Assembly: GCF_000442255.1 (NCBI RefSeq)
Contig: NZ_KE557274.1
Span: 66,467 to 130,466 of the forward strand
Reading direction: 5' to 3'
From: Salipiger mucosus DSM 16094
Lineage (GTDB): Bacteria; Pseudomonadota; Alphaproteobacteria; Rhodobacterales; Rhodobacteraceae
DNA length: 64,000 nt
Position numbers and translations under genes: made by a program. Positions 17,415-36,695 of this stretch are shown here, piece after piece. Numbering within the stretch: position 1 is the stretch's first letter; the number at the start of each line of letters is the position of its first letter. Below the pieces are notes generated by a model. It ran no database searches. It saw only the letters and a list, made by a program, of their open reading frames with translations, and was not told where the DNA came from.

Positions 17415-18331
17415 TGATGGCGTGGCGCCCTCGGTCTGATCGAGATCCTTGTTGGCCTCCTGCAGCTTGCGGCGGGCGGCCTTGACCCGGTCGAGGATTT
17501 CGGGATCCGGCCCCGGGGGACGAGAGGGATCGATGGGTGTCTTGGGAGTTCCCCCCTCGGGTTCACCGCCCGGGAACCTCAGGTTCTTGAGGCTCGGCCG
17601 CGGTCCTCTGGCCTGGGCCGGGGATCCCGTTTGTTCGGCGGAGGAGGCCGCTGTTTTGTCAACATTGGAAGACGCCTGTCTGCGCCCAGCGCCTCGGGTG
17701 TCAACATTGGGGGTGTCGGGGCCCTGACCAGGGGAGCCTGTCGGGGAGCTGTTCCCGCGGGATGCTGCGGGTGCCTTGTCAACATTGGGAGAAGAGGTGG
17801 CCTGACCCCGTGAAGCGGTGTCGGTGTCAACATTGGCGGAGCGGTGTCGGGGCCCGGCACTGGTCGGGGGTTTTGTGTCAACATTGGAAGATGTTGGGGC
17901 GCCAGCTCCGGAGGAGGGGTGGGCCCTGCCCTTCGCGGACGGCGACGCCGGACGGATGTTGAGGCCGCCAAGCCGTGGCTTGGGCCGGGTGGCTGACGGC
18001 CAGCGGGCCGGGTCCCGGTGGAGCCGGGTGTGTCAGCGGCCTTGCCGGTGCCGGTTGGGGCGCCCGTGGTGCTCCTGGGGGTGTCGGGGCCCTGTGGGCC
18101 TTGGGGACGGGACGCTGGGCGGCCGGAGCCGGACGGGGTGCCGGTGGAGCCGGGATGGGATCCTGGATCCCCTGGGTGACCGGGGTCGGCTCCGGTTTCA
18201 GGGGATTGGTCCCCGTTTTTCCCCGGAGGGGTTTGGTGTCTTTTGTCCTGGTGATCAGGCATCGTCTGATCCTCCTGTGGGTCAGCCTGTGGGTCAGTAA
18301 TCGTTTTCGTTCTTTGAATGACTTCTGTCAT
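17415..18331 (-). pseudogene. Disordered, repeat-bearing 5' extension of the recombinase gene, apparently out of frame
   Basis: The recombinase frame is open from 18032 down to 17415 with no ATG, GTG or TTG. It reads a Pro/Ser-rich tail with five copies of NVD(T/K) and then a charged coiled coil joined to the recombinase. A start-bearing frame (18331-17579, MTEVIQRTKTITDPQADPQE, 250 aa, Pro/Gly/Thr-rich) overlaps it in another phase. The simplest reading is one gene of roughly 600 codons carrying a frameshift near 18035, where the recombinase frame meets a TGA. Alternatives are a programmed shift or an unrelated low-complexity ORF. Confidence 0.45.
17657..17887 (-). repeat. Five identical 12-bp direct repeats (CCAATGTTGACA)
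   Basis: Copies at 17657-17668, 17699-17710, 17777-17788, 17825-17836 and 17876-17887. Start-to-start distances are 42, 78, 48 and 51 bp, all multiples of three, so each encodes (P/S/A)NVD in the recombinase frame. Codons are identical in every copy (AAT GTT GAC), unusual for such GC-rich surroundings. A sixth copy lies at 30118-30129. Confidence 0.85.
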
Positions 18332-18433
18332 GAAATAGGGGCGTGCGAGGCACTGGAGCCCGATTTTCGAGATTGGAGAACGTATGTTTCTCGGAAAGGG
18401 TCCTGTTCTTGATCTTGAGAGCTCTCCCCCCAT

Positions 18434-19132: not shown

Positions 19133-19177
19133 AGGGCCCCGAGACCCAGTGCAGTAAGCACCAGATCCCGGGGCCCT
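19133..19177 (-). terminator. Hairpin at the leader-distal end of CRISPR array 1
   Basis: AGGGCCCCG pairs perfectly with CGGGGCCCT around a 27-nt loop. On the minus strand it is followed by TACTTTTCC. It directly abuts the last repeat and would end the pre-crRNA. Confidence 0.65.
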
Positions 19178-19337
19178 TTTCAATCCACGCACCCACGAGG
19201 GGTGCGACCACGCCGACCGGCAAGATGTACGCCATGATGGCGGTTTCAATCCACGCACCCGCAAGGGGTGCGACACCTGACGCTGGCCTGCACCAAGTGC
19301 AACCAGTTTCAATCCACGCACCCGCAAGGGGTGCGAC
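19177..19337 (-). CRISPR. CRISPR array 1, type I-C repeat, two spacers
   Basis: Three 32-bp repeats (19177-19208, 19243-19274, 19306-19337) that on the plus strand begin GTTTCAATCC and end GGGGTGCGAC. Read on the minus strand they give the type I-C form GTCGCACC...GTGGATTGAAAC. The left one is degenerate (T for first G), as expected for the oldest repeat. Spacer 1 is 19209-19242 (34 nt) and spacer 2 is 19275-19305 (31 nt). Spacer 1 matches the gene at 32581-34341 (32/34, protospacer 33196-33229, PAM TTC). Spacer 2 matches iscB (30/31, protospacer 23214-23244). Confidence 0.95.
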
Positions 19338-19430
19338 TTACAGTCTGTAAGCCATTGCGATTGTTTAGTCAATCCTTTCAGCCCTGCGAACCTAGAATTC
19401 TTTCTTACGAGATCGATGACCTCTTCCGCC
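19338..19430 (-). promoter_or_regulatory. CRISPR leader of array 1
   Basis: The sequence next to the leader-proximal repeat begins with the palindrome TTACAGTCTGTAA and shares about three quarters of its first 60 bp with the sequence beside array 2 (36696 onward), including TCAATCCTTTC and CTGCGAACC. It lies between cas7 and the array. The end of the leader is not defined. Confidence 0.65.
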
Positions 19431-19530
19431 GTGATGGTGACCAAACACCTTTCCCGGCAGCATTTCTGCCATCTGCGAACCTCCCGGGGCCTGGGCTGGC
19501 GCTTGAGGTTCGCTCATCGCGAGCTGGATA

Positions 19531-20439
19531 TCAGAACGGTTCGAAGATCTGGATCCCTTGCGGCAGGTTGGTATCGTCGACCCGGATCTCGTAGTCCGAG
19601 AACGCGCGCGCCGGCGGAATGTCGAGCGCGCCACCTGCAAACGGGTTATCCGGTGCACGACGGTGCGTTGTGACCCGATCAAAGAGCTTGTGGGCCTGGG
19701 CATTGCCCAGCGGGCTATCGTGCCGGAAAACGATCAGGCGCCGTGCGGCCATCTCGCCGCGGCTGGCCGACCGGTCGAAGTCGAACATGTCGCGGAGGGC
19801 CGCCCACAGGAGCTCGAGATCATCTTCACCAAAGCCGGATTTCCGGGCGCAGTTCGCGTTGATATATCCGTGGAGGCGATAGAGCCCGTAGGGCACGATG
19901 TACTTGGAGCCCATCGTCCTTTGCTTGTCGCGATCCTTTTCGTTCGTAACGCTGCCGCGGGTGATGCTGATGTCGAACGGGGTCACTGGCTCGACGGAGC
20001 GCGCGAACGTGACCTGAACGGGTCCCCGCACCGAGCCGGCATTGATCTCGGTCGTCATGACGGCGCCGAAGGCACGCACGTCGTAGAAGGTATCGCACAT
20101 CCACCTGGTAATGGCATCCGCCGTCGCCTTATCCTTCGGTGGCTTCTTGGGCGTCGGCTTGACCTTTTCTGCATCGTAGGCGCGCTTGTGAGCTTCGTTG
20201 AGCACCGATCCATCGGTCTGATAGATCTCAAGTCCCTCGGTGTCTTCGAAGTTCTCCGCCACGTAGTTCCTGATTTTCCGTTTGATCGCCACGTCGGATA
20301 CCAGTCCATGCATGGTTTCCGGGTCCTGCCTTGGCATGCCGCCGATATCGGGATCACCATTGGGGTTCCCGTCGGCCACGTCGAAATAGAGAACGAATTC
20401 GTAGCGGTTGTTGATCGGATTTCTCCCTTGTTCAGCCAT
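19531..20439 (-). CDS. cas7c: Cas7 (Csd2), type I-C Cascade backbone
   Basis: A 302-aa protein of normal Csd2 length. Typical motifs are RYEFVLYFDVADGNPNGDPD near the start, FYDVRAFGAVMTTE, GPVQVTFARSVEPV and KYIVPYGLYRLHGYINA. Cas7 subunits coat the crRNA along the Cascade filament. The ATG overlaps the end of the upstream cas8c fusion gene by 8 bp, so the two are translationally coupled. It is the only intact cas gene here, and is followed directly by the leader and array: cas4, cas1 and cas2 are missing. Confidence 0.95.
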   Translation of the reverse strand: MAEQGRNPINNRYEFVLYFDVADGNPNGDPDIGGMPRQDPETMHGLVSDVAIKRKIRNYVAENFEDTEGLEIYQTDGSVLNEAHKRAYDAEKVKPTPKKPPKDKATADAITRWMCDTFYDVRAFGAVMTTEINAGSVRGPVQVTFARSVEPVTPFDISITRGSVTNEKDRDKQRTMGSKYIVPYGLYRLHGYINANCARKSGFGEDDLELLWAALRDMFDFDRSASRGEMAARRLIVFRHDSPLGNAQAHKLFDRVTTHRRAPDNPFAGGALDIPPARAFSDYEIRVDDTNLPQGIQIFEPF

Positions 20440-22624
20440 TGTTGGTCGTGTCCTTTTCTTTCCTGGAATTCCTGGTCGATTTCTGGTGGTAGTAGCCGAC
20501 GCTGAACCGCCCTTGATCCTCCGGCGCAAAGCTTCGCGGCATCCGGGGGGACAACCCGACCTTGATGTCGGTGATCTGCTTGTCGAGCCAGACCGCCAGA
20601 CCCTCATTGCCGTTGCGCCGGATAAGTTTGAGGTAATGGGCCAGGTGACGTTCGATCATCGGGAAGGTCCGCGCCGGCTGCGTGGATGCGGCCGCGAAAT
20701 ACTTGTCCCTGAGTGTTGACCCGACCTCGGGCATGGCGCCCCGCTGAGCGCTCTCGAGCACTGCGAACAGCCGCCCGAGCCTGTATGCGGAGTTTTCTGA
20801 TTGTATGTCGATGCCCACTGGCACGTCCTCCTTTCGGCTATCCTGGTTGATGATCGCCCTGCAGATCGCAGCCTGCTTCCCGGTCACCACCCGTTCCTTT
20901 TGAATGCGTTCCAGGACGCTGGTGAGAAGCGTTCGTGGAAGCTTCTGGCCGGTCAGGACCGCATTCAGGATCTGCTCCGCCATCCCGGGACGGGCGTTTT
21001 CGGATGTCCGCGCCCCATCAGCGTTCGGTCCGACCGTCTGCGCCAGAACCGCCCGGATGGATGGACGTCCATCCCAGACGTCCGGATCGAGGGCGATGTC
21101 GTTCCAGAATTTCAGAATGTTGTCCGCGAACTCACCAACCTGGCCCGGGTACCAGAACCGAATGGACAGCCGGCTGGCATTGGGGCCGAGGCCGAGCACG
21201 AATACCTTGGTGTCGGGATCCAGGCCGTTGAACTCGGAAGGCTTCCCGCGGGCAAGGCGTGACAGCGTGGAGCGAACCTTGGAGGCCTCGTCGGCGTCTT
21301 TCGGTGGATCCATCGCCATGCTCATGATCCAGTCCCCCTCTTCTGCCGCGGGGGCATCAGGCGCCTGGGCCCAGAACACGGTCGTCGTCCCCCCGATGAC
21401 CAGATTGCGTCGGGACGGCCCGCGTTCGGCGAGGATCGCATTGAGCGCCGAGGTGTAATTGTGCGCGGCAACTTCAGAGACGGGAGAGTTCGCACCCTGC
21501 GTCTTCCCGAGAGAACAGAAGGCGTCCTGATTGAAGGATACGATTGAGGTCCCGGACGGCTGGCCGCCCCGAACACCCTTGATGGCCGGGTGCGTTCGCG
21601 CCAGCGCGGCCCAGCGCCCCGTGATCAGGCATTGGATCTCCTCATCGCCCTCCGACGCCTGCGCCGCGGCCCGGATCGCAGGGTGCTCGTGGAGCAGGAT
21701 GGCGTCCTCGCCCTCCCCCAGTTGCACCAGGATCGTCTGGCCGAGGGCGGCGTGCGGCAGAGCCCGCTCAAGATAGGACTCCGGCCGCCAGGCCTCCAGG
21801 AAAGCCAGGAACGCAGACAGGTGAGGATCGCTCGTCCGGCCAATGAGATCTCGATGCTTGGTCGCGAAATTCTCGTGACGGTCAGCGGCACTCTTCGAGA
21901 GTTCCGGCACCAGGGTTTTCCTCCCGGCCTCTGTCGTCTCTTCCCGCGTTCCGACGCCAAGGAGGTATTCTGCGTTGTCGCAGCCCAGGCGGGCAATCAC
22001 CGAGTTCGCGATGTTGTGCAGTTTGCGGCACTTGGATGTCCGGTTCGCGAACAGGCTTTCGAACAGCTGGACCGCGGTCGTCACCACGACCGGGCTGTCC
22101 CAGTTCTGGGCGGCGTTCATGGCTTGGCGCCGCGCGAAATCGTTCTCCAGAGAGGAGGGATCGAAATTGGAGTGGTGCTCCAGGATCGCCCGCTCGCTTC
22201 CGAGGGATTTCCTGAATTCCCTCGCCGTCTGCTCGATGATCGCGTTGTAGGGCGCGACGTAGATCACCCGACGCATTCCATGATGCTCAGCATGCTTCAG
22301 GGCGAACTTCATGGACGCCAGGGTTTTGGCACCTCCCGTCGGCACCGTCATCGAAAACAGCCCTGGCGCCAGAGTCGCCGCATCGCCGGCTGCTCGTTGC
22401 ACGCGATCCCGGACACGATTGACATGGGTCTTCGGCTCGCCGAACCCGGCAATGGTTTTTTCCAGCCGCGCCAGTAGGGGATCCAGTTCCGGAGCTTCCG
22501 GGCGCTCTCGACCTTCCATGAAGGCCTCGGTCGCAAGGAAATCCGCATCGACCAGCGCCGAGAACAGCATCCGGATGAAGAAATGGATGTTGAAATGGCT
22601 CGGCCGTGCTCCCAGCATCGGCAC
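20432..22624 (-). CDS. Cas3-Cas8c in-frame fusion (cas5 lost)
   Basis: A 730-aa ORF from a GTG. Residues 10-210 are Cas3: HD-end segment FFIRMLFSALVDADFLATEA, Walker A VPTGGAKTLASM (Gly to Ala in the usual GGGKT), VIYVAPYNAIIEQTAREFRK, and SPVVVTTAVQLFESLFANRT. At NSVI/ARLG (about residue 210, base 21994) it switches to Cas8c (Csd1): CDNAEYLLGVG, SAADRHENF, SDPHLSAFLAFLE, SFNQDAFCSLGKTQGANSPV, FWYPGQVGEF. So Cas3 motifs II-VI and the C-terminal domain, all of cas5 and about 100 residues of Cas8c are deleted. The deletion kept the frame. As built, it cannot act as a helicase. Its 5' end is itself cut from the HD domain by the IscB element. Confidence 0.85.
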   Translation of the reverse strand: MPMLGARPSHFNIHFFIRMLFSALVDADFLATEAFMEGRERPEAPELDPLLARLEKTIAGFGEPKTHVNRVRDRVQRAAGDAATLAPGLFSMTVPTGGAKTLASMKFALKHAEHHGMRRVIYVAPYNAIIEQTAREFRKSLGSERAILEHHSNFDPSSLENDFARRQAMNAAQNWDSPVVVTTAVQLFESLFANRTSKCRKLHNIANSVIARLGCDNAEYLLGVGTREETTEAGRKTLVPELSKSAADRHENFATKHRDLIGRTSDPHLSAFLAFLEAWRPESYLERALPHAALGQTILVQLGEGEDAILLHEHPAIRAAAQASEGDEEIQCLITGRWAALARTHPAIKGVRGGQPSGTSIVSFNQDAFCSLGKTQGANSPVSEVAAHNYTSALNAILAERGPSRRNLVIGGTTTVFWAQAPDAPAAEEGDWIMSMAMDPPKDADEASKVRSTLSRLARGKPSEFNGLDPDTKVFVLGLGPNASRLSIRFWYPGQVGEFADNILKFWNDIALDPDVWDGRPSIRAVLAQTVGPNADGARTSENARPGMAEQILNAVLTGQKLPRTLLTSVLERIQKERVVTGKQAAICRAIINQDSRKEDVPVGIDIQSENSAYRLGRLFAVLESAQRGAMPEVGSTLRDKYFAAASTQPARTFPMIERHLAHYLKLIRRNGNEGLAVWLDKQITDIKVGLSPRMPRSFAPEDQGRFSVGYYHQKSTRNSRKEKDTTNNG

Positions 22625-22648
22625 GCATTTTCCGCAACGAACGCAACA

Positions 22649-23938
22649 TCATTGATACGCGTATCCGTCGTTGCGATGGATCGCCTTGAAATCACGAGGT
22701 GGGAACGAGCGGGGTTTCTGTCCCGCGGCGCGGAGTTCAAAATTGCCCCTGGTGCGCGGAGAGATGCGACCCTCTAGCCCGCGCGCCTTGGCGATGTCGC
22801 CGGAGCGCCAGCCGTGGATGGGCTTGAGCGGGCGGATCTGAGCGGCGCCCGCCTTGTTGCGGCGGGGCTGGCCGTGTTTGTCAAACACGCCCTTCTGGCG
22901 ACCACCCTGACCCTTGGCATAGATAACCAACGGCTTGTCGGTGCGAAGGGTCAGGGCATCCACGTTGCCGACGGCCGCGGCATCGAGCCAATGAGCCTTG
23001 GCCCAGCCCATCCGCTTGCGGTTGTACTTGGTCCTTCCCCCTGTTCCCGTCGTGACAGGCAGACCCGTCATCTTCAGTGCGGTGAACAGGGCCCAGCGTG
23101 TCGAGTTGACCGATGCCGCGTCTCTGAGAGGCTGTTTCGCCTGTTTCATGATGCGCGCCAGAAGGTCGGGCTTGCTCGACAAGAACGCCTCGACTGGCTT
23201 GTTGCCCTTGGCCTGGTTGCACTTGGTGCAAGCCAGCGTCAGGTTGCTGACCCTGTTCGAGCCGCCGCGCGACCTGGGTTGGATATGTTCAACCTCGAGC
23301 GGGCGGCCCTCAGCTCCGCAATAGGCGCATTTGCGCCCCCATTTGGCGAGTAGATACTCCTTCACTTCGAAGCCTGCCAGTTCGCCCTGCTGATACTCGA
23401 CGCCGCTGATTTCAGGGTTCTGCATCTGCTGCAGATCGAATCTCACCAGTTCCATCGCGATGGAGCTGGCAGGCGCGTAGCGGCGAAACCTGTCCATCCA
23501 GGTCATGATCGTTTCGACACGGTGCATCAGGCTCGGTGCGAGCCAACCCTTCTGACGCTTTCGGCCGGCGTTGTTGATCTGAGCCTTGGTCCTGTAACGT
23601 GGCTTGCGGTAGCGCAGCTTGTTCCGCCGTCCACGACGGCGCTCACGGCGCATCTGCAAGCGCTCCCTGATTTGGTGGCCACGATGGGTCAGCTCCCCGC
23701 CCCAGAGAACCTTGTCACCCTGCACCAGCGCCAGACCCGTGACCTTGGAGCCGGGGTCGATTTTCACTTCAACCGGGGCGGGCTCCGCATCCGGCACCTT
23801 TCGCTTGAGGATGATGGTGAAGGGATAACGACGAAACACCGCCGCCTTCCCGTTGCGCAGCAACTGCCGCGCTCGTGCTGGCGACGTCGGCGACAAGGGT
23901 CGCCGGGCGTCATCCAGTACAAAAACATAGTTGGACAT
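22649..23938 (-). CDS. iscB: IscB, RNA-guided RuvC-HNH nuclease
   Basis: A 429-aa protein, the usual IscB size. Order of parts: PLMP domain (VFVLDDARRPLSPTSPARAR, residues 5-24), RuvC-I with Asp61 (VKIDPGSKVTGLAL), Arg-rich bridge helix (about 97-116), RuvC-II with Glu163 (IAMELVRFD), an HNH domain with C204/C207, LEVEHIQPRSRGG (His218) and C238/C241, RuvC-III with HWLDAAAVGNVDA (Asp319), then the C-terminal target-recognition region. All catalytic residues are present. IscB uses an omega-RNA encoded upstream to cut double-stranded DNA. The stop codon abuts the left inverted repeat. An in-locus CRISPR spacer matches codons for LTLACTKCNQ. Confidence 0.95.
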   Translation of the reverse strand: MSNYVFVLDDARRPLSPTSPARARQLLRNGKAAVFRRYPFTIILKRKVPDAEPAPVEVKIDPGSKVTGLALVQGDKVLWGGELTHRGHQIRERLQMRRERRRGRRNKLRYRKPRYRTKAQINNAGRKRQKGWLAPSLMHRVETIMTWMDRFRRYAPASSIAMELVRFDLQQMQNPEISGVEYQQGELAGFEVKEYLLAKWGRKCAYCGAEGRPLEVEHIQPRSRGGSNRVSNLTLACTKCNQAKGNKPVEAFLSSKPDLLARIMKQAKQPLRDAASVNSTRWALFTALKMTGLPVTTGTGGRTKYNRKRMGWAKAHWLDAAAVGNVDALTLRTDKPLVIYAKGQGGRQKGVFDKHGQPRRNKAGAAQIRPLKPIHGWRSGDIAKARGLEGRISPRTRGNFELRAAGQKPRSFPPRDFKAIHRNDGYAYQ

Positions 23939-23940
23939 TT

Positions 23941-24164
23941 CTGTCCCTTTCTGGCCCGAAGGCCGTTAGGTTTGCCTCGACAAAGTTACTGGCGCTTTCG
24001 TGTGCCCAACTCACTGGACCTTTCAGTCCCTCCCGCTCGCGCGAGAGACTTAAAGCTGGGCGAAAGAGGCAATGGCTGGCGTTCACCAAAGCATTTCATC
24101 ACGCCACTAACGTAGATTGGATTGCTCCTTTCTTAGTCTGCACCTCACCCGGCACTCAGAACGC
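23941..24164 (-). ncRNA. Omega-RNA region upstream of iscB
   Basis: IscB guides are encoded just 5' of the gene. On the minus strand this gap contains stacked hairpins: CTCTCGCGCGAG, GGACTGAAAGGTCC and GGCCTTCGGGCC, the last about 15 nt before the iscB ATG. No ORF fits. In IscB elements the guide is at the RNA 5' end and read from DNA flanking the element, here the cas3 side near 24165-24200. The RNA ends were not defined. Confidence 0.65.
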
Positions 24165-24184
24165 GATGTTGCGTTCGTTGCGCG

Positions 24185-24631
24185 TTAGGGTGAGGGCTGC
24201 GGCGGTTCTGGGGTGCCGGGTTCCGTCCCGAGCGGGATGTCCACGGCTTCGGCGTCCTCGAGGCGGACATCCAGTGGTGTCGTCGGGCTCGCTCCCTCGA
24301 TGGCATCCCCGCGCCCGTTCGGAAGACCGGTGTGGTGCCCGGCAATCCCGTAGGCGAGCATCTGTGCCATGTTGGGATTGATGATTTCGAAGGCCTTCAG
24401 GGCGCCGTCCACCGCATGCGGCACCTGCTCACCACCCTCCAGGTAGGCCTGAAAAGATGGTTTTGCCTTCCCGAGATCATGGAGAAGCCCGCTGGCCTTC
24501 CCCATCCATCCGGCCCCGAAAGGATCCGCATTGATTTCGGCGCCAGTCGCCACATTCCACGCATGTTCTTGGTAACTTTCCCACTCGGACTTCGGTCGAC
24601 CCGGGATAGTGTGAGCATAGATCTTCGCCAT
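24185..24631 (-). pseudogene. cas3: Cas3 HD-nuclease fragment (type I-C), separated by the IscB insertion
   Basis: A 148-aa frame starting MAKIYAHTIPG with the HD metal-site motifs of Cas3'': QEHAWNVA (His23), SGLLHDLGK (His51-Asp52), PHAVDGALKAF (His71) and GIAGHHTG (His98-His99). The frame then ends in a Pro-rich linker at TAA, right where the IscB element begins. The rest of the HD domain (LVDAD) and a helicase stub continue at 22594 and below. So one cas3 gene is split into two ORFs. The fragment retains most HD ligands but lacks the final aspartate. Confidence 0.85.
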
Positions 24632-24766: not shown

Positions 24767-24864
24767 ATTTCAATTCACGCACCAAGGAGAGGTGTGACAA
24801 GGCGCCATCAGTGGACGCGCCGGGTCAGGCACGTTTCGATCCATGACCCAAGGCTTTGCTTCCC
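24767..24864 (-). CRISPR. Degenerate repeat-spacer-repeat unit upstream of cas3
   Basis: A diverged 32-bp repeat (24767-24798: ATTTCAATTCACGCACC... GGTGTGAC), a 34-nt spacer-sized gap (24799-24832), and a second heavily decayed repeat (24833-24864, starting GTTTCGATCCATGACCC). Exact 32-34-32 spacing argues that it descends from a CRISPR unit. No leader palindrome is on its right side. It lies about 135 bp upstream of the cas3 start, in the cas promoter region. Confidence 0.65.
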
Positions 24865-32580: not shown

Positions 32581-34341
32581 TCATGCCGCCCCCATCAGCA
32601 CCAGCAACGGCAGCAGGGCGGCCGCCAGACCGAGGCCTTCCAGGCCAGCCATGAAGCCACCCTCCTCCTCGCTGTCCTCGTCCTCATCCTGATTTTCAGG
32701 ATCCTCTTCCGCCGGCGGGTCGGGCTCGGGATTTTCAGAATCTTCGGCCTCTTCATCCTCCGGAGGGGTATCGCCGCCCTCATCTCCCTGTCCGGCGCCA
32801 TCGATCTCATCCATGGCGGCCTGCATGGCTTCTGTCGGCTCGAAGTCCGATACCTTGACCTGCATGATCTCGTAGGGTTCCAGGTCTGCCGAGATGTAGC
32901 CCTCGTTATAGACCTCCTCGGGATCCAGCTGGCGAACGGTTGGCGTGGATGCCTGGTCGCCGGGATTTTGCCCCTCCTCGACGCCCAACACAGTGATCTC
33001 GAGGGTGCCGGCGTCCTTTAACAGCCCGGAGACATCCACCTCCTGGCTGATAGCCTGATCACTATTTGAGGCGAGATAGAACACGGCCTCGCCGTCTCCG
33101 TAGAAGCCATGAACGTCCATGTCCGGGAAGGATGCGTTGTCGGCCATCTCGCCATCCCCGCGCATGTCCAGGACGCTTTTCCCGGGGAGATTTTCGGACA
33201 TCATGGCGTACATCTTGCCGGTCGGCGTGAGCTCCTGGTACTCGCGCCCGAGGCTGAGAGAGGCGGATGAGTTCTGCAGCAGCGGCCAGACCTGGGCCTC
33301 GTCGACCCCGTGATCGGCGAACTCCTCGATCATGTTCAGCAGCTCGTGGCTGTTCTTGAGCCCGTAGTCCTCGTGGTCTTCGTGCGCGCCGGTGTTGCTG
33401 TGCTGGTTCCACTCGCTGACATAGGTCTCCTTGTCGGCGAACCGCGGATCCTGTCCCCAGGTCTCGTCGATGGCGTCGAGCATGTAACTCCGCTGCCAGT
33501 CGCCCGTGTCGTCCCCCACCTTGGAGTAGACGTGGCCGACGACCGCATCCATCGCGTCCACCTCCTCCGGGGTGTCGAAGTGGGACATGATGATTTCGTT
33601 GTTGATCCCGGTGAAGCCGTTCGAAGGGAGCTCTTCGAGATCGAGGTCATAGCGGTCGTTGACCGCATCGAGGATCTCGGCGTGGCTCATCCCCTCGTAG
33701 TCCTCGTCGAGGCTCGAGTGATTGAAGTTGGTCCCCATCTGAACGATGACCTCGGTGTCGGCCGCCTGCGCATAGTCTCCCTCGAGGCTGCGGAGCTCGT
33801 CGTCGATGATTGTCGCCATCTCGCTGGCGACCCGGCCGTACTCGGTGGCGCTCATGCGCCCGGATCCCCAGTACTCGTTGCCGATCTCGAACCCGGCGAT
33901 GTCCACGTCTCCCCATTTCCCGGTGACCGCATCGTTCACGAACTGCCGGAGGCCCTCCTCATCGATGTCCGCGTACCGGTCACCGTTGGCATCCGTCTCG
34001 TCGGAGAGCTGATCCCGGGTGTTGAGCACCAGGACCGCAGAGAGATCCTCGTCTTCCGCGAATTGCATGAATTCAGAGATCTGGATGAAGTCGCTCTGTT
34101 CCCCCGTCTCGCGGTCGAAGACGACCTCCCGGTCGGGGTTCGCGAAGTCGAAGTAGTCCTCGGTCACCGAGCCGCCGGGATAGCGCAGCGTGTGCACGCG
34201 GACATCGTCGACCAGCTCGTCGTAGTTGACCGCCTCATCGAGCGAGTTGCGGTGGGCAAGGATGTTCGCGCCAAAGAGGCCTTCGGCAACCTCTTCCCCG
34301 GCGCCCGAGAGTTCCAGCTTGGGCATGGCAATCCTGTGCAT
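32581..34341 (-). CDS. Putative clan-A glycoside hydrolase with acidic linker and C-terminal membrane tail
   Basis: A 586-aa protein. Residues 15-360 look like a (beta/alpha)8 hydrolase: VHTLRYPGGSVTEDYFDF, the acid/base-like FEIGNEYWGSGRM and the nucleophile-like TYVSEWNQHS, as in GH51/GH39/GH79. A beta domain follows. Residues about 505-555 are Asp/Glu/Pro-rich, then GLGLAAALLPLLVLMGAA ends the protein as a tail anchor. No N-terminal signal is seen, so a type I-like export route is possible but not shown. CRISPR spacer 1 matches codons for TPTGKMYAMM with a TTC PAM. A start at 34326 is equally possible. Confidence 0.65.
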   Translation of the reverse strand: MHRIAMPKLELSGAGEEVAEGLFGANILAHRNSLDEAVNYDELVDDVRVHTLRYPGGSVTEDYFDFANPDREVVFDRETGEQSDFIQISEFMQFAEDEDLSAVLVLNTRDQLSDETDANGDRYADIDEEGLRQFVNDAVTGKWGDVDIAGFEIGNEYWGSGRMSATEYGRVASEMATIIDDELRSLEGDYAQAADTEVIVQMGTNFNHSSLDEDYEGMSHAEILDAVNDRYDLDLEELPSNGFTGINNEIIMSHFDTPEEVDAMDAVVGHVYSKVGDDTGDWQRSYMLDAIDETWGQDPRFADKETYVSEWNQHSNTGAHEDHEDYGLKNSHELLNMIEEFADHGVDEAQVWPLLQNSSASLSLGREYQELTPTGKMYAMMSENLPGKSVLDMRGDGEMADNASFPDMDVHGFYGDGEAVFYLASNSDQAISQEVDVSGLLKDAGTLEITVLGVEEGQNPGDQASTPTVRQLDPEEVYNEGYISADLEPYEIMQVKVSDFEPTEAMQAAMDEIDGAGQGDEGGDTPPEDEEAEDSENPEPDPPAEEDPENQDEDEDSEEEGGFMAGLEGLGLAAALLPLLVLMGAA

Positions 34342-36531: not shown

Positions 36532-36695
36532 TCTGCGATCCACGCACCCGCGAGGGGTGCGACAGAGCGTGCTCCCGCCGAGCCACCCGGGCATCTGGTT
36601 TCAATCCACGCACCCGCAAGGGGTGCGACGTCCTTTCTCGGCCTGGTCTTTTCCACATCAGCCGTTTCAATCCACGCACCCACAAGAGGTGCGAC
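36532..36695 (-). CRISPR. CRISPR array 2, type I-C repeat, two spacers
   Basis: Three 32-bp repeats: 36532-36563 (first nine bases decayed to TCTGCGATC), 36598-36629 (identical to the canonical repeat of array 1) and 36664-36695 (variant CACAAGAGGTGCGAC end). Spacers 36564-36597 and 36630-36663, both 34 nt; I find no match to them in this window. No cas gene is nearby, so it depends on Cas proteins from elsewhere. Confidence 0.92.

What the first reader, a model, noticed from the sequence alone, without database searches (positions are those of the whole stretch)
19275..23244. CRISPR spacer in array 1 targets the iscB gene that sits inside the same cas operon
Spacer 2 (19275-19305) equals 23214-23244 in 30 of 31 bases (one difference at 23231), in the HNH-coding part of iscB. 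The two elements are 4 kb apart: the nuclease that broke cas3 is a listed target of the array served by that cas3. With Cas3 split and Cas5 lost, self-targeting is tolerable, so the conflict looks frozen in place. The base triplet beside the protospacer is GCC, not TTC, so the spacer may have been acquired from a relative of this iscB.
Basis: seen in the sequence. Interest (0 to 1): 0.92.

Follow-up and report, generated by a model that had tools for sequence, protein, structure and literature searches.

The report
Dead CRISPR keeps spacer against IscB
A broken CRISPR immune locus in a marine-type bacterium still stores a short sequence matching the mobile RNA-guided nuclease gene (iscB) that sits inside its own cas3 gene, which looks like the inactive trace of a clash between two RNA-guided systems.

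Summary
Observation confirmed: spacer 2 (19275-19305) matches iscB 23214-23244 in 30 of 31 bases, far above chance. The iscB lies on a ~1.58-kb ISC element splitting cas3 between its HD and helicase parts. The system is a type I-C relic: the second half of cas3 and the start of cas8c are missing, and no Cas1 or Cas5 match was found in the held assembly (97.5% complete). In a published type I-C system cas5d is needed for crRNA processing, so interference is almost certainly dead. The predicted donor (exact match plus TTC) was not found. Two sibling iscB copies have TTC there but differ at six adjacent bases; of the own copies examined only the one inside cas3 shares those six. So the spacer most likely came from this iscB lineage; whether before or after cas3 was split is open. 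A HEARO/omega-RNA match starts 2 nt inside the element, so its guide would be cas3 sequence: the two systems' guides would point at each other.

The parts
19177..19337 (-). CRISPR array 1: three 32-nt repeats (19177-19208 degenerate, 19243-19274, 19306-19337), two spacers; crRNA strand is minus
   Evidence: orientation from the repeat ending ATTGAAAC on the minus strand and the leader-like sequence shared with array 2 on the right side
19209..19242 (-). spacer 1, 34 nt, leader-distal (older)
   Evidence: 32/34 to 33196-33229
19275..19305 (-). spacer 2, 31 nt, leader-proximal (newer), matches iscB
   Evidence: 30/31 to 23214-23244
19338..19415 (-). leader-like sequence shared with array 2
   Evidence: local alignment of the two flanks
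19531..20607 (-). cas7 (Csd2)
   Evidence: PF05107 1e-96; TIGR02589 9e-101
20432..22624 (-). fusion ORF: Cas3 helicase fragment (residues about 9-210) joined to Cas8c/Csd1 lacking its start
   Evidence: DEAD and Csd1 hits; alignment to the congener Cas3 158-364 and Cas8c 80-590
22619..24196 (-). ISC element (iscB plus upstream non-coding region), inserted in cas3; its right end is uncertain by about 9 nt
   Evidence: three other full copies at 95-97% DNA identity with unrelated flanks
22649..23938 (-). iscB, 429 aa, RRXRR and HNH
   Evidence: PF14239, PF01844; NF040563 guided_IscB 1.1e-135, 451.9 bits against cut-off 175
23214..23244 (+). protospacer of spacer 2 (crRNA sense), HNH second CxxC knuckle
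23211..23213 (+). PAM position of protospacer 2: GCC, not TTC
23965..24194 (-). HEARO/omega-RNA-like scaffold
   Evidence: RF02033, E 2.1e-10, model 1-211 of 211, 56.9 bits, below the gathering score of 83
24197..24212 (-). predicted omega-RNA guide: cas3 sequence just outside the element
   Evidence: inference from the 5' guide architecture of IscB (PMC9640706 passages) and the element edge
24185..24631 (-). cas3 HD part; the ORF ends just inside the element
   Evidence: PF01966 2e-6; TIGR01596 6.5e-16; aligns to congener Cas3 10-129
24767..24798 (-). orphan degenerate repeat, 24 of 32 to the repeat
32581..34341 (-). gene hit by spacer 1; homologues annotated as type I secretion or calcium-binding proteins
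33196..33229 (+). protospacer of spacer 1 (crRNA sense); TTC PAM at 33193-33195
   Evidence: mismatches at crRNA positions 1 and 3
36532..36695 (-). CRISPR array 2: three repeats, spacers 36564-36597 and 36630-36663
   Evidence: no own-genome target with up to 3 mismatches

Best explanation
This is a dead type I-C CRISPR-Cas relic whose newest array-1 spacer was copied from the iscB lineage now sitting in its cas3. Shown by sequence: the 30/31 match, the ISC insertion splitting cas3, the missing Cas1, Cas5 and second half of cas3, and the six bases shared only with the local copy among the own copies examined. Inferred: when Cas1-Cas2 was still present the locus captured a piece of this iscB (this copy or a near-identical one); the ISC element also broke cas3; later deletions removed cas5 and the adaptation genes. 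With no Cas5 for crRNA processing, no complete Cas3 and no TTC PAM at the target, the crRNA cannot direct cutting today, so spacer and target persist side by side. In the other direction the omega-RNA guide of this copy would be cas3 sequence, so IscB would aim at uninterrupted cas3 alleles while the spacer aims at iscB.
For: Match 30/31 and chance control; no other match with up to 3 mismatches in the own genome or in the other 393 family genomes; ACCAAG core shared by spacer and local copy, GAGCCC in three sibling copies and in the distant fifth copy, CTKC in 0 of 10 plasmid IscBs fetched, 0 pattern matches in genome contigs; the one mismatch is synonymous (GCC/GCT, Ala; and the frame). ISC insertion. 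No Cas1 and no Cas5, with the controls ringing in 9 and 6 of 14 genomes. Cas5d, Csd1 and Csd2 needed for crRNA processing and TTC as the PAM in Xanthomonas type I-C (PMC8406640, passages). HEARO match ending 2 nt inside the element edge.
Against: The assembly is in 30 contigs and 97.5% complete, so cas genes could lie in an unassembled part. The HEARO match is below Rfam's gathering score. The local protospacer lacks TTC while two sibling copies have it, which leaves room for a different, unseen donor. No expression data.
Confidence: 0.8

Rival explanations
1. Immunity first: an incoming plasmid or phage carried a related iscB with CTKC and a TTC-side KKGN sequence; the intact I-C system took a normal spacer from it; the element later jumped into cas3 and ended the immunity.
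For: The PAM position reads TTC (crRNA sense) in sibling copies L007 and L009. The ISC element is a recent arrival: of 20 genus genomes searched only this one has full-length copies, the other 19 having only 34-41% matches over at most 58 residues. Sibling copies show recombination tracts in this very stretch (L007 and L009 differ at 2 sites within 23133-23315 but 65 outside), so a CTKC plus TTC mosaic is possible.
Against: No such donor was found. Outside that stretch the local copy is nearest L007 (31 differences), inside it nearest L008 (9 against 21), and the distant fifth copy also has the non-TTC state, so the local lineage probably never had TTC.
Confidence: 0.35
2. Insertion first: the ISC element broke cas3, which removed the penalty for self-spacers; the remaining adaptation proteins, perhaps already without Cas4, then sampled nearby DNA, including the iscB beside the array. 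Breaks made by the element could have fed this.
For: Both array-1 spacers match DNA within 14 kb of the array (4 kb and 14 kb; if the two sites were random in 5.69 Mb, about 2e-5, post hoc); spacer 2 is 31 nt, against 34, 34 and 34 for the others here and 32-38 in 35 of 35 congener spacers; no PAM; only one synonymous change. Loss of cas4 is reported to give spacers from regions lacking a correct PAM (PMC6519985, passage).
Against: Spacer 1 does have TTC. Array 2 spacers (2 of 2) do not match the genome. The order of events cannot be read from one genome, and whether Cas4 was lost before Cas1-Cas2 is unknown.
Confidence: 0.35
3. Primed adaptation: older spacer 1, imperfectly matching 33196, primed Cas3-driven uptake from neighbouring DNA and yielded spacer 2 from iscB 10 kb away.
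For: Spacer 1 is leader-distal (older), has a TTC PAM and two seed mismatches. Primed uptake near a pre-existing match, including self DNA outside mobile elements, is reviewed in PMC6990116 (passages).
Against: Needs working Cas3 with the ISC already somewhere near; the local target lacks a PAM.
Confidence: 0.12
4. Antisense control: transcript of array 1 pairs with iscB mRNA (30 of 31 bases) and damps iscB without any Cas protein.
For: The array would be transcribed from the minus strand, giving RNA complementary to iscB mRNA (orientation).
Against: No transcript data; three sibling iscB copies mismatch at six or seven bases; no precedent searched.
Confidence: 0.04
5. The match is a coincidence of a conserved HNH/zinc-knuckle coding motif.
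For: A 21-of-21 match exists in Rhodobacterales IS91 transposase genes, showing that part of the motif can recur.
Against: IS91 reaches only 23 of 31 overall; Cupriavidus iscB 24 of 31; 30 of 31 only here.
Confidence: 0.01

Closest known systems
Self-targeting CRISPR spacers matching integrated mobile elements, in systems with mutated cas genes (review PMC6990116, passages and sections 6-7 seen)
   Same: A host array holds spacers matching DNA of the same genome, one of them in a transposon; the Cas machinery is broken.
   Different: The target is an RNA-guided transposon nuclease, and it is the very insertion that splits the system's own cas3; its predicted guide in turn is cas3 sequence. I found no paper on this in listings.
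Type I-C CRISPR-Cas (congener locus L029 with full cas3, cas8c, cas7 and 36 repeats)
   Same: Same gene order, Csd1/Csd2 proteins, 32-nt repeat ending in GAAAC, spacers mostly 33-35 nt.
   Different: Here cas3 is split and halved, cas8c lacks its start, no Cas1 or Cas5 is found, and two very short arrays remain.
IscB/OMEGA elements (ISC group) with HEARO/omega-RNA
   Same: RRXRR and HNH protein, HEARO-like RNA upstream, several copies with unrelated flanks.
   Different: Inserted in a cas3 gene and matched by a spacer of that locus; HEARO score below the gathering cut-off.

Membership tests
Type I-C CRISPR-Cas | Cas7/Csd2 and Cas8c/Csd1 | tested here: met
   TIGR02589 and TIGR01863 over cut-off
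Type I-C CRISPR-Cas | Cas5 (crRNA processing) | tested here: not met
   PF09704: 0 matches in the held genome; control rings in 6 of 14
Type I-C CRISPR-Cas | complete Cas3 | tested here: not met
   HD part and residues 158-364 only, split by ISC; TIGR01587 gives 6 own-genome matches, none over cut-off (this model also rings weakly in all 14 controls)
Type I-C CRISPR-Cas | Cas1 (adaptation) | tested here: not met
   PF01867: 0 matches; control rings in 9 of 14. Cas2 and Cas4 not searched
IscB (OMEGA) | RRXRR/RuvC and HNH protein over the IscB model cut-off | tested here: met
   NF040563 451.9 bits against 175
IscB (OMEGA) | omega-RNA/HEARO upstream | tested here: inconclusive
   RF02033 full-length, E 2.1e-10, but 56.9 bits against gathering 83; nothing at gathering threshold
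IscB (OMEGA) | RNA-guided cleavage | not testable with these tools
   needs protein and RNA assay
Self-targeting spacer (spacer 2) | near-identical match in own genome | tested here: met
   30/31
Self-targeting spacer (spacer 2) | functional PAM (TTC) | tested here: not met
   GCC
Self-targeting spacer (spacer 1) | near-identical match with TTC PAM | tested here: met
   32/34, TTC; mismatches at positions 1 and 3

The most novel reading that the evidence does not exclude
Post-mortem memory: the IscB element disabled interference by entering cas3, and the surviving adaptation machinery then recorded DNA around the wound, including the nuclease gene itself, as PAM-less and mis-sized spacers. The array would then be a record made after immunity had died, and the omega-RNA guide (cas3) and the crRNA guide (iscB) would form a reciprocal pair between two RNA-guided systems at one locus.
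Probability: 0.25. Interest if true: 0.7.

Novelty: new variant of a known kind. Interest (0 to 1): 0.5.

Why it matters
Self-targeting spacers against integrated transposons are known, but here the target is itself an RNA-guided nuclease (a relative of the ancestors of Cas9), it is the insertion that split the system's cas3, and its predicted guide is cas3 sequence. If more such loci exist they would show OMEGA elements acting as de facto anti-CRISPR agents, and whether arrays keep recording after interference is lost becomes a testable question by comparing strains.

Tried and rejected
Searching for the spacer donor: relaxed exact patterns in viral contigs and genome contigs, close-relative searches (pattern matches but no confirmed relatives), megablast of the element in plasmids (none), tblastn in plasmids (81 records, best listed 57%), short blastn in plasmids and phages (10 rows of each listing seen). 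None gave a donor.

A variation peak among the four own ISC copies falls on the protospacer and PAM (14 variable sites per 34 nt against a mean of 2.5; 10 in the PAM plus protospacer window, reached by 2.1% of windows). I first took this as possible escape from CRISPR and dropped it: the two residues inside CxxC vary freely in the IscB family (10 of 10 plasmid genes fetched differ from CTKC) and a recombination tract explains the rest.

IS91 as an alternative source of spacer 2: 21 of 21 bases but 23 of 31 overall; rejected. Targets for array-2 spacers: none in the own genome with up to 3 mismatches and no exact viral match; the inner 31 nt of spacer 1 has no exact viral match either. The 35 spacers of congener G397 gave no match above 0.70 identity to the ISC element, the window or its own locus. 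Rfam at gathering threshold: none. Structure prediction was not used.

Full report
Observation. Spacer 2 of array 1 (19275-19305, 31 nt) is the reverse complement of 23214-23244 in 30 of 31 bases, with the difference at 23231. For 400 random 31-mers from the reversed window, the best window match was 17-23. With up to 3 mismatches the spacer occurs twice in this genome, in the array and in this iscB, and in none of the other 393 family genomes searched.

A second self-match. Spacer 1 (19209-19242, 34 nt) matches 33196-33229 in 32 of 34 bases. The triplet before it in crRNA sense is TTC, the PAM shown for type I-C in Xanthomonas (PMC8406640, passages; also used in PMC10810201, passages). The two mismatches are at crRNA positions 1 and 3. 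The target gene (32581-34341) has homologues on Salipiger and Alloyangia plasmids annotated hypothetical or type I secretion protein. In the three homologues examined, of ten records with a match, the residue at those positions is Ala (GCC); the spacer also codes Ala (GCG) while the local gene now has Ser (TCC). Two of the three homologues come from one species, so they are not fully independent. Among 394 family genomes the only matches with up to 3 mismatches are in this genome. Array 2 (36532-36695) has two spacers, neither matching this genome with up to 3 mismatches. So two of the four spacers, both of array 1, match own DNA, 4 and 14 kb from the array.

The locus. Cas7, a Cas3-helicase/Cas8c fusion ORF, iscB and a Cas3 HD part follow one another on the minus strand. 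In congener G397 (locus L029) the same genes are intact: Cas3 760 aa, Cas8c 604 aa, Cas7 304 aa, and an array of 36 repeats. Aligned to these, the window keeps Cas3 10-129, is interrupted by the ISC element, resumes at Cas3 158-364 and then joins Cas8c at about residue 80 (against the CCB-MM3 protein the alignment begins at Cas8c residue 38, so the junction is approximate). The lost stretch is where cas5 lies in the usual gene order (recalled; I did not identify cas5 in L029). No Cas5 and no Cas1 match was found in the held assembly (30 contigs, 97.5% complete). Cas2 and Cas4 were not searched. The TIGR01587 search gave six weak own-genome matches, none over cut-off, one being the fragment here; that model rings weakly in all 14 controls, so it says little. 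Xanthomonas type I-C needs cas5d, csd1 and csd2 for crRNA processing and cas3 for interference (PMC8406640, passages). I therefore read the locus as dead. A plasmid of Salipiger sp. CCB-MM3 shows another relic with only cas8c and cas7 listed, beside IS3 transposases (that gene table is incomplete). The genus name Salipiger is an inference: genome G406 has its Cas8c match at the same coordinates as that plasmid.

The element. Four full copies of a ~1.58-kb ISC element occur in this genome (window, L007, L008, L009; 95-97% DNA identity to the window copy) with unrelated flanks, one copy is broken (L011/L012) and one more IscB is 55% identical. Of 20 genus genomes, the 19 others have only short 34-41% matches to the HNH part. 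Joining the cas3 flanks gives an open frame through the site. A HEARO RNA match covers 24194-23965 on the minus strand over the full model, E 2.1e-10, but 56.9 bits is below Rfam's gathering score of 83 and nothing reaches that threshold. It begins 2 nt inside the element. In IscB the guide is the ~17-nt 5' segment of the omega-RNA (PMC9640706, passages); that it comes from the host flank is recalled (the 2021 paper is not held). The predicted guide is thus cas3 sequence (24212-24197), so IscB would aim at uninterrupted cas3 while the spacer matches iscB. This reciprocity is inferred from anatomy, not shown.

Where spacer 2 came from. The spacer's ACCAAG (Thr-Lys in the CxxC knuckle) is shared with the window copy only; L007, L008, L009 and the distant L010 all have GAGCCC. 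Ten plasmid IscBs fetched, of 81 records with a match, all have other residues there. A pattern allowing third-base changes has no match in genome contigs (a similar one has none in viral contigs). The single mismatch is synonymous. So the source was this iscB lineage. The PAM is a puzzle: the window copy has GCC, L007 and L009 have TTC. Outside 23133-23315 the window copy is nearest L007 (31 differences), inside it nearest L008 (9, against 21 to L007), and L007 and L009 differ at only 2 sites there against 65 outside; it looks as if L007 received the L009 tract, and the window copy kept the non-TTC state that L010 also has.

Timing. Insertion first fits the missing PAM, the 31-nt length (others here 34, 34, 34; 35 of 35 congener spacers are 32-38) and the closeness of both targets (about 2e-5 if random, post hoc). 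Cas4 loss is reported to give spacers lacking a correct PAM (PMC6519985, passage). Immunity first fits TTC in the siblings and the recent arrival of the element. Priming from spacer 1 is possible (PMC6990116, passages). I cannot separate these with one genome.

Novelty. Self-targeting spacers against transposons are known (PMC6990116, section 7). I found no report of a spacer against the IscB that splits its own system's cas3; this rests on three listings over an open-access library, so it is not proof of absence. It is a new variant of a known kind, not a new system.

Noticed in passing
window 33196-33229: Spacer 1 of array 1 also matches own DNA (32/34) with a TTC PAM; the spacer codes Ala where the gene now has Ser, and three of three homologues examined have Ala.
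   Followed up: yes
window 36532-36695: A second I-C array with the same repeat and a shared leader-like sequence; its two spacers have no own-genome target with up to 3 mismatches.
   Followed up: partly
window 24767-24798: An orphan degenerate repeat next to a hairpin-like sequence, perhaps the last remnant of a third array.
   Followed up: no
L007, L008, L009 (own-genome ISC copies): L007 and L009 are nearly identical over 23133-23315 (2 differences) but differ at 65 sites elsewhere: a recombination tract between ISC copies.
   Followed up: partly
L011/L012 (G000:C2:350280-351009): A broken ISC copy whose middle part is missing.
   Followed up: no
L028 8890-11636 (Salipiger sp. CCB-MM3 plasmid): Another type I-C relic with only cas8c and cas7 listed, beside IS3 transposases.
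   Followed up: partly
window 17657-17888: Several copies of TGTCAACATTGG within about 230 bases inside an ORF (17579-18433).
   Followed up: no
L057 1501-1521: A 21-of-21 match of spacer 2 to Rhodobacterales IS91 transposase genes; only 23 of 31 overall.
   Followed up: yes
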